A stretch of 64,000 nt of DNA from Solwaraspora sp. WMMD791 (lineage in GTDB: Bacteria; Actinomycetota; Actinomycetes; Mycobacteriales; Micromonosporaceae): assembly GCF_029581195.1 (NCBI RefSeq), contig NZ_CP120737.1, positions 1,674,001-1,738,000 of the forward strand, given 5' to 3'. Every line of letters starts with the position of its first letter. Position 1 is the first letter of the stretch. Positions 55,472 through 64,000 of this stretch are shown piece after piece. The translations under genes were made by a program, and so were the position numbers. Below the pieces are notes generated by a model. It did not search any database, was not told the DNA's origin, and was given only the letters and a program-made list of their open reading frames with translations.

Positions 55472-58400
55472 ATGCACGTGGAGCTCTCCTTGCCTTCATC
55501 CGCGCACCTTCCCCTCTCCCCCCACCAGCGAGACGTCTGGGTGGCGGCGTCCCGGTTCCCGCACCTGCCGCAGTTCAACTGCTGCATCTACGACCGGTTC
55601 GACGGCCGGGTGGACGTGCCAGCGCTCCGTGACGCCCTGGCTGCCGCGATCGCCCGCAACGACTCCTTCCACCTGCGGTTCGACGAGGCCGACGGCATGC
55701 CGTGGCAGTGGTACGAGCCGGCCGCGCCGGTGGTCGAGATCGTCGACTTCACCGCCACGCCCGACCCGGCGGCGGCGAGCGCGGCGTGGATCGCCGACCG
55801 TTTCGCCCGCCCGTTCCCGCTGCACCGCCAACGCCTCTACGGACTGTGGATCCTTCGGGAGAGCGAGTCCGTGGTCTACGCCTACGTGCAGTGTCACCAC
55901 ATCGTCTGCGACGCCTGGGGCCTCAACGTACTCATCGGCCAGGTCCGCGACGACTACGCCCACCGGGTACGGACCGGCCGGCCGACCCGCGTGGACGCAC
56001 CGTCCTACGTACAGTCGGTGCTCGACCAGCAAGAGCAGATCGACGACGTCCGTACCGGGGCGGCCGGCTTCTTCCGGTCCTACCTGCGCGACGTGGAGCC
56101 GGCGCTGTTCCACCGGCGCAGTCCCGCCGGCACCCGGCGTACGGCGATCGAACGCTTCACCGTCGACCGTGCCCTGATCGACCGGATCAGAGCCGGCGGA
56201 GACAGCCCGTTCGCGTTCCTGACCGCGGTGATCGCCGGCTACCTGGGCCGGGTGCACCGCAGCGACGAGGTGCTCGTCGGCGTCTCCCTGCTGAACCGGC
56301 TCACCGAGACCGAGCGGGCGCTCACCGGCCACTTCGCCAACACCCTGCCGATGCGGGTGCCACTCGGCGGGGGCCGGTCCGTGCGGACCGTGGTGGACCA
56401 GATCCGCCAGGACACCCGGCAGCTCAAGCGCCACGAACGCTACCCACTCGGCGACCTGCTGCGCGACCTGCGCGCCAGCGGGGTGGGCCATCGCCAACTG
56501 TTCGACGTCACCATCTCCTACATGCGCTGGTCGGCGCCGGTGCCGGTGCCGGACGCCAGCTACCGCACCGTGGCCACCAACCCGTCGCACGATCCGGATG
56601 CGCTCGCCGTCCTGATCAACGAACTCGACGAGGTCAGCGACGTCGTGGTGGAGCTCGGCTACGGCTGCGACGTGTTCGACGAGGACCTGCCCATCGCCGA
56701 GGTCGGTCGACAGCTGACCACCCTGCTGCGCCACGCGTTGGCCGAGCCGACGGCCGCGCTCGCCGCGCTGCCCCTGCTCACCGGGGCGGAGATCGACGAG
56801 TTGGTCGCGGGCCACACCGACCCGCCGGTGCCGTACCCGCACGACACCACCCTGGCCGGGCTGTTCGCCGCCGCCGTGGACCGGCATCCGGACCGGGTCG
56901 CGGTCGTCGACGACGCGAGTGGGCGACTGCTCACCTTCGCCGATGTGGCCCGCAGCGTCGACGCGCTCGCCGCCGAGCTGCGCGAGCGGGGTATCGGGGC
57001 CGACGACCGGGTGGCGGTACTCGCCGCCCGTAGCCTGGAACTGGTCGTCGCGGTGCACGCCGTGGCGCGGGCCGGAGCAGCGTACGTGCCGGTCGATCCG
57101 GGCTACCCCGCACAACGGATCGCGATGCTGCTCGCCGACAGCGCCGCCCGGATCGTCCTGACCGACGGATCCGCGTCGGCCGCCGACGCCGTGGCGCAGA
57201 TGCCGGCTCCCGGGTCGACGGTGGTCCCGGTGACGCCGTGGCTGACCAGGAGGCCCGGTGGTGCGACGGTGCCGTTCCCCCGACCGACCGATCTCGCCTA
57301 CGTCATCTACACCTCCGGCTCCACCGGCCGACCGAAGGGGACGATGGTGGAGCACCGGTCGGTGGTCAACCGACTGCACTGGATGCAACGCCGGTACCCG
57401 ATCGGCGGCGACGACGTGCTGCTGCAGAAGACACCGAGCTCGTTCGACGTGTCGGTGTGGGAGCTGTTCTGGTGGTCGTTCACCGGCGCCCGGCTGGCAC
57501 TGGCCCCACCGGGCAGCGAACGGGATCCGGACCAGCTGCTGCAGGTGATCGAACGGTGCCAGGTGACCGTGATCCACTTCGTACCGTCGATGCTCGGACC
57601 GCTGCTGGACCTGCTGGAGAAGGCGCCGGCGCGCCGCCGCCAGGCGGCGAGCCTGCGCCTGGTCTTCGCCAGCGGCGAGGCGTTGACACCCGATCGGGTA
57701 CGGCAGTTCAACCGGATCTTCCACGCCGACCCGCCGGCCGGCCGGCCACTGCCCCGGTTGGTGAACCTTTACGGCCCGACCGAGGCCACCGTCGACGTCT
57801 CGTACTACGACTGCCCGACCGGGCCGCAGACGGCGGTCGACCGGGTGCCGATCGGCCGGGCGATCGACAACATCCGGTTGTCCGTGCTCGACGCGCACGG
57901 CACCCCGCAACCGCCCGGCATCGCCGGCGAGCTGTGCGTCAGTGGTGTCGGGGTGGCCCGGGGATACCTCGACCGTCCGGACCTGACCCGGGACCGCTTC
58001 GTGGCCGATCCGTTGCGACCCGGCGAACGGATGTACCGCACCGGTGACCTGGCCCGCTGGCTGGCCGACGGGAACCTGGAGTATCTGGGCCGGCTCGACG
58101 AGCAGGTCAAGATCCGGGGCAACCGGGTGGAGCTCGGCGAGGTCCGACGCCACCTGGCGACGCTGCCCGGGGTGCGCGACGCGGTGGTGGTCGACCACCG
58201 GTCGGCCACCCACGGCACCCGGCTGGTCGGCTACTACGTCGCCGACCACCCGATCGACCCGACCGACCTGCGCACCGGACTGGCCCGGTGGCTGCCGGAC
58301 TTCATGGTCCCGAGCTTCTTCGTCCGCATCGACGCGGTGCCGGTCACTCCCAACGGCAAGACCGACCGTCGGGCGCTGCCGGATCCCGTCGCCGGCCCGC

Positions 58401-62849: not shown

Positions 62850-64000
62850 ATGAGCAGTCCACCGCCGACGGCCATCGTCGTCGGTGCCGGGATCGGCGGT
62901 CTCACCGCCGCCGCGGCGCTTCGTCGCACCGGCTACCAGGTCAGGATCTTCGAACGGGCCACCGACCTGCTGCCCGCCGGCAGCGCCCTGGCGCTGACCT
63001 GCAACGCGTCGGTCGCGCTGCGCCAGATGGGCATCGAGCTGAACCTCAACGGCCGGGCCGTGCAGTGGGACCGGCTGCACTTCAAGACCGCGGCCGGTCA
63101 GGTGATCCGCACCATCCACTACCGGCACTTCATCCAGGAGTTCGGGGTGCCGATGCTGGCGGTGCACCGCGCCGACCTGCAACAGGCGCTGCTGGAGCAG
63201 GTCGGCGAGGAATCGGTGACCCTCGGCGCGACCGCGACCGGGTACGACGTCGACGGCGACCAGGTCCAGGTGGCCTTCAGCGACGGGCACACCGTACGCG
63301 GCGACGTCCTGATCGGTGCCGACGGGATCCGGTCGGCGGTCCGCCGGCAGCTGCTCGGCCCGGAAGAGCTACGCGACGGCGACTACATCTGCTGGCTCGC
63401 GACGCCGCACTTCACTCATCCCCGGGTGACCCCCGGCTACGCCGCGCACTACTGGGGGCGCGGACGGCGGTTCGGGCTCGCCGACATCGGCAACGGCCGG
63501 GTCTACTGGTGGGGCACCTTGAACATGCCCGGTGAAGCCGCCCGGACCTGGAAGGGCGACCGGGAGGAGATCGAGCGGACCTACGCCGGCTGGGCCGACG
63601 AGGTGGGCGCCGTCCTGCGGGCCACGCCGGACGACACCATCATCACCATTCCGGCCCAGGACCGCCCGTTCCGCGGCTCGTGGGGCACCGGCCCGGTGAC
63701 CCTGCTCGGCGACGCCGCCCACCCGATGATGACCAGTCTCGGCCAGGGCGCGGCGATGGCGGTCGAGGACGGCGTGGTGCTCGCCCAGTGCCTGGCCGGT
63801 GCCGACACGATCAGCGCCGGGCTGCGCGCATACGAGGACGCCCGCCGCCCCCGTACCCACCAGATGGTGCAGGCGTCGTACGCGCTGAGCCGCATCGAGC
63901 AGGCCGAACATCCGCTGGCCGTGCTCGGCCGCCGGCTGTACTTCCGCTGGGTGCCGCAACGCTCGATCGACGCGCGCAACCGGGCGGCGCTGACCTTCCA
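62850..64000 (+). CDS. FAD-dependent monooxygenase (3' partial)
   Basis: ATG 62850, four bases after the NRPS stop, with a GAGGAG site inside the NRPS end, so the two are coupled. At least 383 residues of a group A flavoprotein monooxygenase: IVVGAGIGGLTAAAALRRTGY and FERATDLLPAG (FAD fold), GADGIRSAVRRQLLG (the D-G motif), and VTLLGDAAHPMMTSLGQGAAMAVEDG (second FAD motif). The last residues continue past the window. In pyrrolizidine alkaloid pathways the matching enzyme (PxaB, LgnC) does a Baeyer-Villiger oxidation that drives ring contraction; assignment here rests on context. Confidence 0.92.
   Translation, partial: MSSPPPTAIVVGAGIGGLTAAAALRRTGYQVRIFERATDLLPAGSALALTCNASVALRQMGIELNLNGRAVQWDRLHFKTAAGQVIRTIHYRHFIQEFGVPMLAVHRADLQQALLEQVGEESVTLGATATGYDVDGDQVQVAFSDGHTVRGDVLIGADGIRSAVRRQLLGPEELRDGDYICWLATPHFTHPRVTPGYAAHYWGRGRRFGLADIGNGRVYWWGTLNMPGEAARTWKGDREEIERTYAGWADEVGAVLRATPDDTIITIPAQDRPFRGSWGTGPVTLLGDAAHPMMTSLGQGAAMAVEDGVVLAQCLAGADTISAGLRAYEDARRPRTHQMVQASYALSRIEQAEHPLAVLGRRLYFRWVPQRSIDARNRAALTF

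What the first reader, a model, noticed from the sequence alone, without database searches (positions are those of the whole stretch)
55472..64000. Probable pyrrolizidine alkaloid (acyl-Ser-Pro) biosynthesis locus
A two-module NRPS (C-A-PCP-C-A-PCP-TE) is coupled to an FAD monooxygenase. A1 carries the EntF serine code and A2 has a D-V-Q start seen in proline domains. This is the architecture of the published pyrrolizixenamide (PxaA/PxaB) and legonmycin (LgnB/LgnC) pathways, where an acyl-Ser/Thr-Pro dipeptide is cyclised and the FAD enzyme performs a Baeyer-Villiger-type ring contraction. The Ser-using form would resemble PxaA. Established: those pathways. Seen: domains and codes. Inferred: the product.
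Basis: partly seen in the sequence, partly recalled or inferred. Interest (0 to 1): 0.9.

Follow-up and report, generated by a model that had tools for sequence, protein, structure and literature searches.

The report
Bicyclic proline-alkaloid biosynthesis gene cluster
A bacterium carries a block of genes that very probably builds a small, reactive two-ring molecule from a fatty acid, serine and proline (or a relative of proline): a known kind of pathway, here with unusual extra enzymes and an oddly divergent protease gene next door that may protect the producer.

Summary
Window 55472-62845 encodes a C-A-T-C-A-T-TE NRPS; 4 bases later an FAD monooxygenase begins and ends 13 bases past the window. 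A1 has a serine code; A2 has a DVQ code of the type shared with a Xenorhabdus relative. The FAD enzyme has H200, Y219 and W221, the residues essential in LgnC, at the same numbers, and falls in one clade (100/99) with the other NRPS-adjacent enzymes. The pathway family is well supported. The scaffold is not decided: this chemistry yields pyrrolizidines, 5+7 bicyclic carbamates or brabantamides.

New: synteny bounds a 20 kb island (about 51.1-70.95 kb), present in 2 of 6 genus genomes examined. A PapA-like acyltransferase and a YxxxQ SDR follow, as in 18 of 24 other clusters. Then come P450, SnoaL-like, B12 radical-SAM and DUF364 genes; upstream are an extra tRNA-editing homologue, KAS III and 3HCDH. 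A third ClpP beside the island is a genus-core gene, but its sequence is discordant in the island carriers (80% against 95% identity), while 11 neighbouring genes are not. Target-based self-resistance is possible, not proven.

The parts
51156..52094 (-). 3-hydroxyacyl-CoA dehydrogenase homologue, first gene of the island
   Evidence: 3HCDH_N E=8e-49, 3HCDH E=1.5e-34; inside the synteny-defined island
52076..53071 (-). KAS III (FabH-like); possible acyl-chain supply (inferred)
   Evidence: ACP_syn_III_C E=1.8e-26; ACSGF, PHQAN and GNIGSAS motifs present
53735..54799 (+). MmyB-like transcription regulator; true start uncertain (ORF opens at 53327)
   Evidence: MLTR_LBD E=4.1e-33, HTH_31 E=5.8e-14
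54870..55499 (-). Extra aminoacyl-tRNA-editing homologue; the ORF overlaps the NRPS start on the other strand, so its true start is probably further in
   Evidence: tRNA_edit E=3.9e-27; 57-60% identical core copy in 7 of 7 genus genomes; nearest solved 2cx5
55472..62845 (+). Bimodular NRPS C-A-T-C-A-T-TE: predicted acyl-Ser-Pro-type synthetase
   Evidence: Pfam domains; codes and motifs
55508..56791 (+). C1, presumed lipid-starter condensation domain, motif HHIVCDA
   Evidence: First domain of the protein; nearest solved chain 7c1k (I recall it as a lipid-starter C domain); motif
56864..58396 (+). A1, serine code DVWHFSLVD
58742..60019 (+). C2, presumed to dehydrate Ser and condense with the A2 substrate (inferred)
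   Evidence: Condensation match at aa 1091-1516; HHALLDG
60137..61666 (+). A2, proline-type code DVQFVSQLA
62009..62770 (+). TE, GWSFGG, presumed cyclising release
   Evidence: Thioesterase match at aa 2180-2433; motif
62850..64000 (+). LgnC/PxaB-type FAD monooxygenase (ends at window-equivalent 64013)
   Evidence: H200, R207, Y219, W221, T295 at LgnC numbers; clade 100/99 with NRPS-adjacent relatives

Best explanation
An acquired biosynthetic island encodes a bimodular NRPS coupled to an LgnC/PxaB/BraC-type Baeyer-Villiger monooxygenase. C1 loads a fatty acyl group and A1 loads Ser; C2 dehydrates the acyl-Ser and joins it to the A2 substrate (proline or a proline analogue); TE releases it by cyclisation as a bicyclic 5+6 dihydroindolizinone. 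The monooxygenase inserts oxygen to give a 5+7 oxazepine-dione (bicyclic carbamate), which can persist or lose CO2 and contract to a pyrrolizidine. An acyltransferase, an SDR and a P450 then decorate it. Shown here: gene order, domains, codes, the monooxygenase's key residues and clade, and the island bounds. Inferred from the published pathways: every reaction, the acyl chain, the exact A2 substrate, the final scaffold and any activity.
For: Domains C-A-T-C-A-T-TE. A1 Ser code identical in 24 of 25 clusters and one residue off in the other; A2 starts DVQ in 24 of 24 readable. Monooxygenase triad H200/Y219/W221 at LgnC numbering, the residues whose mutation abolishes activity or costs 95% (PMC11457151). 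Triad in 15 of 16 same-family hits and in 9 of the 80 loci kept from the named-genome scan, all 9 with the NRPS adjacent; of the other 71 none has the triad. 25 NRPS-adjacent enzymes form one clade 100/99 against 11 outgroup rows chosen by me. Island bounds by synteny with 4 relatives.
Against: Authentic PxaA/B, LgnB/C/D and BraB/C were not held. Two LgnC-numbered positions differ (S48 is Ala; Q350 is Glu by plain numbering). The motif is YWWGTLN, not YWWxTKN. The C1 motif is HHxxxDA, not HHxxxDG. Nothing shows expression, activity or a product.
Confidence: 0.8

Rival explanations
1. The functional product is the 5+7 bicyclic carbamate, a covalent ClpP inhibitor of the clipibicyclene/metaze B type; any pyrrolizidine is its breakdown product. 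The divergent ClpP next to the island is a tolerant target copy that protects the producer. (This is a special case of the main reading.)
For: Carbamates of this family inhibit ClpP and decay to the contracted ring; clpP genes mark such clusters (PMC13386464). Third clpP 7.6 kb past the monooxygenase. Its identity to relatives is 80% against 95% among them, while 11 other backbone genes differ by -1.4 to +3.1 points. It is not faster-evolving by outgroup distance.
Against: The third clpP is in 7 of 7 genus genomes and at the same site in the 4 island-free relatives examined. None of 23 other clusters (G034 aside) had a ClpP match within the flanks held. The comparison was made after the fact; the species root is uncertain.
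Confidence: 0.35
2. The A2 substrate is not proline but a modified proline made by the island's B12 radical-SAM enzyme (for example a methylproline), and the extra tRNA-editing homologue clears that analogue from tRNAPro.
For: B12 radical-SAM gene with CPYHCDFC in the same island; extra tRNA_edit copy; A2 code differs from the Xenorhabdus one at 4 of 9 positions. Related pathways are proposed to use 5-methylproline (PMC7820566) or use azetidine-2-carboxylate, and B12 radical-SAM genes accompany azetidine synthase genes where methyl-azetidine carboxylate is presumed (PMC11794875 passages).
Against: The one close B12 radical-SAM relative found (47%) lies in an unrelated gene setting. The editing homologue has Asn where its nearest solved relative has Lys, but so do the core copies. 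A2 is not exceptionally divergent among the NRPS domains. No enzyme activity is known.
Confidence: 0.25
3. A brabantamide-type lipocyclocarbamate is formed instead, by enzyme-controlled rearrangement of the same 5+7 intermediate.
For: BraC and PxaB are homologues that make the same intermediate (PMC11177316 abstract and introduction).
Against: No glycosyltransferase among the 12 island genes scanned, whereas brabantamides are rhamnosylated. The nearest held relatives are actinobacterial.
Confidence: 0.08

Closest known systems
Pyrrolizixenamide PxaA/PxaB (Xenorhabdus); stand-in here X. hominickii locus L074
   Same: One bimodular NRPS C-A-T-C-A-T-TE with Ser code and DVQ..SQ A2 code next to a BVMO with the H/R/Y/W residues; same BVMO clade
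   Different: NRPS 38% and BVMO 43% identical; X. hominickii had no match to the acyltransferase, SDR or other island genes within the flanks held; PxaA/PxaB of X. stockiae not compared
Legonmycin LgnA-D (Streptomyces sp. MA37)
   Same: BVMO residues essential in LgnC are present at the same numbers
   Different: Legonmycin splits the NRPS into LgnB (A-T) and LgnD (C-T-C-A-T-TE), uses Thr and needs a type II thioesterase; here one bimodular NRPS with a Ser code and no separate thioesterase among the 12 island genes scanned
Azetidomonamide / clipibicyclene / metaze (azetidine bicyclic carbamates, ClpP inhibitors)
   Same: Same NRPS and BVMO logic by description; a clpP gene nearby
   Different: No azetidine synthase candidate by Pfam among the island genes; the clpP here is a genus-core locus rather than a cluster gene by position
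Bohemamine / legoncarbamate lga cluster (Streptomyces sp. CT37)
   Same: NRPS with Ser and Pro/5-methyl-Pro A domains plus LgnC-like BVMO (PMC7820566)
   Different: lga has a methylase, an alpha-ketoacid dehydrogenase and an isovaleryl-CoA dehydrogenase gene as described; the island has none of these by Pfam, but B12 radical-SAM, P450, acyltransferase and SDR genes. Sequences not compared
Undescribed sub-class: NRPS + BVMO + PapA-like acyltransferase + SDR in same-family genomes and five Streptomyces
   Same: All four genes together in 19 of 25 clusters including the window's; HxxxDG acyltransferase and YxxxQ SDR in 9 of 9 aligned
   Different: NRPS 47-53%, BVMO 48-57%, acyltransferase 46-52%, SDR 51-58% identical except for near-copy G034; acyltransferase fused to the BVMO in YIM 121038 and S. 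coffeae; 3HCDH, KAS III, regulator, tRNA_edit, B12 radical-SAM and DUF364 matched only in G034 among 24 other loci

Membership tests
Bimodular NRPS + LgnC/PxaB/BraC-type BVMO bicyclic-alkaloid pathways | One NRPS C-A-T-C-A-T-TE | tested here: met
   Pfam
Bimodular NRPS + LgnC/PxaB/BraC-type BVMO bicyclic-alkaloid pathways | A1 for Ser (or Thr) | tested here: met
   DVWHFSLVD; identical in 24 of 25 clusters. Prediction by code, no assay
Bimodular NRPS + LgnC/PxaB/BraC-type BVMO bicyclic-alkaloid pathways | A2 for proline or a proline analogue | tested here: inconclusive
   DVQFVSQLA: DVQ start as in 24 of 24 readable clusters, S-Q pair as in 21 of 24; which proline-type amino acid cannot be told
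Bimodular NRPS + LgnC/PxaB/BraC-type BVMO bicyclic-alkaloid pathways | BVMO residues H200, Y219, W221 | tested here: met
   requirement from PMC11457151
Bimodular NRPS + LgnC/PxaB/BraC-type BVMO bicyclic-alkaloid pathways | BVMO in the PxaB/LgnC clade | tested here: met
   Clade 100/99 with X. hominickii and the other NRPS-adjacent enzymes; stand-ins, as authentic PxaB/LgnC/BraC were not held
Bimodular NRPS + LgnC/PxaB/BraC-type BVMO bicyclic-alkaloid pathways | C2 dehydrates Ser; TE cyclises; BVMO expands the ring | not testable with these tools
   Needs enzyme assays
Pyrrolizidine alkaloid producers (end product a 5+5 ring) | Pyrrolizidine isolated | not testable with these tools
   Needs chemistry; the same enzymes can stop at or divert from the carbamate
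Legonmycin type | Split NRPS (LgnB, LgnD) and a type II thioesterase | tested here: not met
   Single bimodular NRPS; no separate thioesterase among the 12 island genes scanned
Azetidomonamide/clipibicyclene type | Azetidine-2-carboxylate synthase gene | tested here: inconclusive
   No methyltransferase-like domain by Pfam among the 12 island genes; AzeJ itself was not compared, and its fold is recalled
Azetidomonamide/clipibicyclene type | clpP resistance gene in the cluster | tested here: inconclusive
   clpP adjacent and sequence-discordant but a genus-core locus
Brabantamide type | Rhamnosyltransferase in the cluster (recalled; rhamnosylated chain from PMC11177316) | tested here: not met
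   No glycosyltransferase among the 12 island genes; the GT2 gene at 76.4 kb is backbone

The most novel reading that the evidence does not exclude
The island makes an acyltransferase-decorated bicyclic carbamate from a radical-SAM-modified proline analogue and protects its host twice: a xenologous ClpP, taken in at the genus's own third-clpP site, tolerates the carbamate warhead, and an extra tRNA-editing protein clears the toxic proline analogue from tRNAPro.
Probability: 0.12. Interest if true: 0.8.

Novelty: new variant of a known kind. Interest (0 to 1): 0.5.

Why it matters
The core pathway is known, so the value lies in the variant. It belongs to a recurring sub-class (acyltransferase and YxxxQ SDR beside NRPS and BVMO in 19 of 25 clusters compared) for which my searches of the held library found no described product. 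It offers a test of whether a core clpP paralogue can be replaced in place to give self-resistance to a ClpP-directed electrophile. If the tRNA-editing homologue clears a proline analogue, that would be a second and unusual kind of self-protection in an NRPS pathway.

Tried and rejected
1. 'ClpP beside the cluster shows self-resistance' was my first reading of the neighbourhood. It was weakened when the third clpP proved to be in 7 of 7 genus genomes and at the same site in the four island-free relatives examined; it was partly revived by the sequence discordance. Both sides are reported.

2. 'The ClpP evolved faster after the island arrived' was not supported: its mean identity to 24 same-family ClpPs (75.1%) equals that of four relatives' copies (74.2-76.0%). 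Those 24 were picked as best matches of this very ClpP, which leans in its favour; identity to the housekeeping copy of the same genome (66.2% against 65.1-69.2%) has no such lean and agrees. AU tests reject trees with G000 inside the other copies (p 0.011 and 0.009), but the backbone tree has five taxa, an unresolved centre and a midpoint root, so the depth of the split is the firm part, not the topology. In one search the rows named hk1 are in fact second reads of the hk2 copies; the genus ClpP3 group is not affected.

3. 'A 1.4 kb gap after the BVMO' was a fault of my gene picker, which dropped overlapping ORFs. The stretch holds an intact acyltransferase frame; a GTG of that frame overlaps the BVMO stop codon (sequence printed).

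4. EF-Tu, the luciferase-like gene and the OleA-, GT2- and OleC-like genes downstream are backbone, not cluster (the Ole names are recalled).

5. A2 as a specially fast-diverging domain: not supported. Window A2 identities to seven clusters (44-57%) are in line with the other domains, although its branch in a quick A2 tree is long (0.64).

6. No structure prediction or fold search was made: the open questions are substrate and target, which a fold would not settle.

7. PDB chain 8s6l is a close solved relative of the acyltransferase (402 bits); a search for its code in papers found none.

8. Library searches joining this pathway with acyltransferase, PapA5 or Micromonospora terms showed no described cluster of the sub-class (listings only; most subscription papers are not held).
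Full report
WHAT IS THERE. The window is C1:1674001-1738000 of a 6.93 Mb one-contig genome. At 55472-62845 (+) lies a 2457-aa NRPS with Pfam domains C-A-T-C-A-T-TE. Four bases later an FAD monooxygenase begins at 62850 and ends at window-equivalent 64013. The A1 code is DVWHFSLVD and the A2 code DVQFVSQLA.

IS THE MONOOXYGENASE OF THE LGNC/PXAB KIND? In LgnC, H200A and W221A abolish activity and Y219F loses 95%; the authors say that the three residues are absent from other BVMOs and highly conserved in LgnC homologues (PMC11457151). 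The window enzyme has His, Tyr and Trp at exactly 200, 219 and 221, and R207 and T295 as well; S48 is Ala, and 350 is Glu by plain numbering (the LgnC sequence itself was not held). Of 16 hits at E<=1e-60 in 300 same-family genomes, own genome included, 15 have the triad and the one at 38% identity does not. Those 15 also have the NRPS beside them; the sixteenth locus showed none. Of the other 71 none has the triad, and 2 showed separate, partial NRPS matches. In a tree of 36 rows, the 25 NRPS-adjacent enzymes form one clade at 100/99, with the window and Xenorhabdus hominickii inside and 11 outgroup rows chosen by me outside. Authentic PxaB, LgnC and BraC were not available.

WHAT DOES THE NRPS LOAD? 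Among 25 clusters the Ser code is identical in 24 and one residue off in one. A2 could be read in 24 and starts DVQ in all 24; 21 of 24 have Ser and Gln at code positions 6 and 7, while three Streptomyces (CB02366, SM11, S. californicus) read DVQHCSHAA. The window's A2 differs from the X. hominickii code at 4 of 9 positions. C1's nearest solved relative is 7c1k, which I recall to be a lipid-starter C domain. Its motif HHxxxDA departs from HHxxxDG, as in 5 of 25 clusters (window, G034 and the three Streptomyces just named). The choice of acyl chain, the dehydration by C2 and the cyclisation by TE are inferred from the published pathways.

HOW FAR DOES THE CLUSTER REACH? In four of the five genus relatives without this island (G060, G079, G093, G105; G114 not examined) the upstream GH9 gene lies next to the HTH/ClpP/EF-Tu genes. 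In G000 and G034 a block from about 51.1 to 70.95 kb stands between them. It holds, in order: 3HCDH and KAS III (-), an MmyB-like regulator, a tRNA-editing homologue (-), NRPS, BVMO, a PapA-like acyltransferase (about 64010-65470), SDR (65454-66377), P450 (66387-67604), a SnoaL-like protein (about 67604-68053), a B12 radical-SAM protein (68099-70042) and a DUF364 protein (70112-70930); coordinates past 64000 are window-equivalent. G093, G105 and G114 carry another version of the NRPS/BVMO cluster more than 1 Mb from their third clpP on the same contig.

A SUB-CLASS. The acyltransferase and SDR accompany NRPS and BVMO in 19 of 25 clusters: the window, 13 same-family genomes (near-copy G034 among them) and five Streptomyces (YIM 121038, CB02366, SM11, S. 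californicus, S. coffeae). Of the other six, five (G048, NBRC 110028, S. shenzhenensis, S. inusitatus, X. hominickii) had neither gene within the flanks held, and S. misionensis had only a 35% partial SDR match. Some of the 25 are near-copies of each other, so the counts are not independent. In nine aligned members the acyltransferase keeps HxxxDG and the SDR reads YxxxQ where YxxxK is usual (the usual motif is recalled). In YIM 121038 and S. coffeae the acyltransferase is fused to the BVMO. The P450 has only 36-42% matches in the other clusters, where it lies on the far side of the NRPS.

ISLAND-SPECIFIC GENES. 3HCDH, KAS III, regulator, tRNA-editing, B12 radical-SAM and DUF364 genes matched only G034 among the 24 other loci (E<=1e-12; 3HCDH, KAS III, tRNA-editing, DUF364 and ClpP again at E<=1e-3). 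The SnoaL-like gene was not tested there. The B12 radical-SAM protein had no match but its own at E<=1e-50 in 394 class genomes; its one close relative on plasmids, at 47%, lies beside thymidylate-synthase-like, FemAB-like and MFS genes. The DUF364 protein had no match but its own at E<=1e-10 in 396 phylum genomes. The tRNA-editing homologue is an extra copy: each of the seven genus genomes has another of 57-60% identity.

THE CLPP QUESTION. Bicyclic carbamates of this family inhibit ClpP, and a clpP gene can mark such clusters (PMC13386464). A third clpP lies 7.6 kb past the BVMO. Against a link: it is in 7 of 7 genus genomes, at the same site in the four island-free relatives examined, and no cluster but the near-copy G034 showed a ClpP within the flanks held. 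For a link: of 12 backbone genes compared with two to four relatives, 11 show the same identity for G000-to-relatives as among relatives (differences -1.4 to +3.1 points), but ClpP shows 80% against 95% (the HTH gene could not be compared). The two island carriers are identical in it. Its distance to outgroups is ordinary (the 24 outgroups were picked by likeness to this ClpP), which points to replacement by a separate lineage rather than to decay or speed-up. The test was made after the fact and the species root is uncertain. I put about 0.35 on a functional link.

VERDICT. 'Pyrrolizidine' should be widened to 'bicyclic carbamate or pyrrolizidine'. It is a new variant of a known kind.

PAPERS. 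PMC11457151: abstract, introduction, results and discussion. PMC7820566: abstract, results and discussion. PMC11177316: abstract, introduction. PMC13386464: passages and the main text section (both parts). PMC11794875, PMC9854587, PMC10676414: passages. Culp et al. 2022 (clipibicyclene): seen only as a citation. Other papers: search listings only.

Noticed in passing
L004:9631-10296 (-), window-equivalent 71631-72296: Third ClpP of the genome, a genus-core gene beside the island, whose sequence is discordant in the island carriers (80% against 95% identity among relatives).
   Followed up: yes
L004:10381-11811 (-), window-equivalent 72381-73811: An EF-Tu homologue directly beside the third clpP; backbone in the four relatives examined. 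Whether the genome has another EF-Tu was not checked.
   Followed up: partly
L004:3454-4377 (+), window-equivalent 65454-66377: The SDR reads YxxxQ where short-chain dehydrogenases usually have YxxxK; the same in 9 of 9 aligned members from other clusters and the window.
   Followed up: partly
L068, L069, L071: Three Streptomyces clusters of the sub-class share an altered A2 code DVQHCSHAA and the HHxxxDA C1 motif, hinting at another proline-type substrate.
   Followed up: no
L173:11860-14483: Relative of the B12 radical-SAM protein on a Streptomyces sp. NBC_01591 plasmid, between a thymidylate-synthase-like gene and FemAB-like genes: a different, apparently uncharacterised gene cluster.
   Followed up: partly
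L004:13395-18803 (+), window-equivalent 75395-80803: Backbone run of KAS III-like, GT2, AMP-ligase, P450-like and epimerase genes resembling an olefin or beta-lactone (Ole-type, recalled) locus.
   Followed up: no
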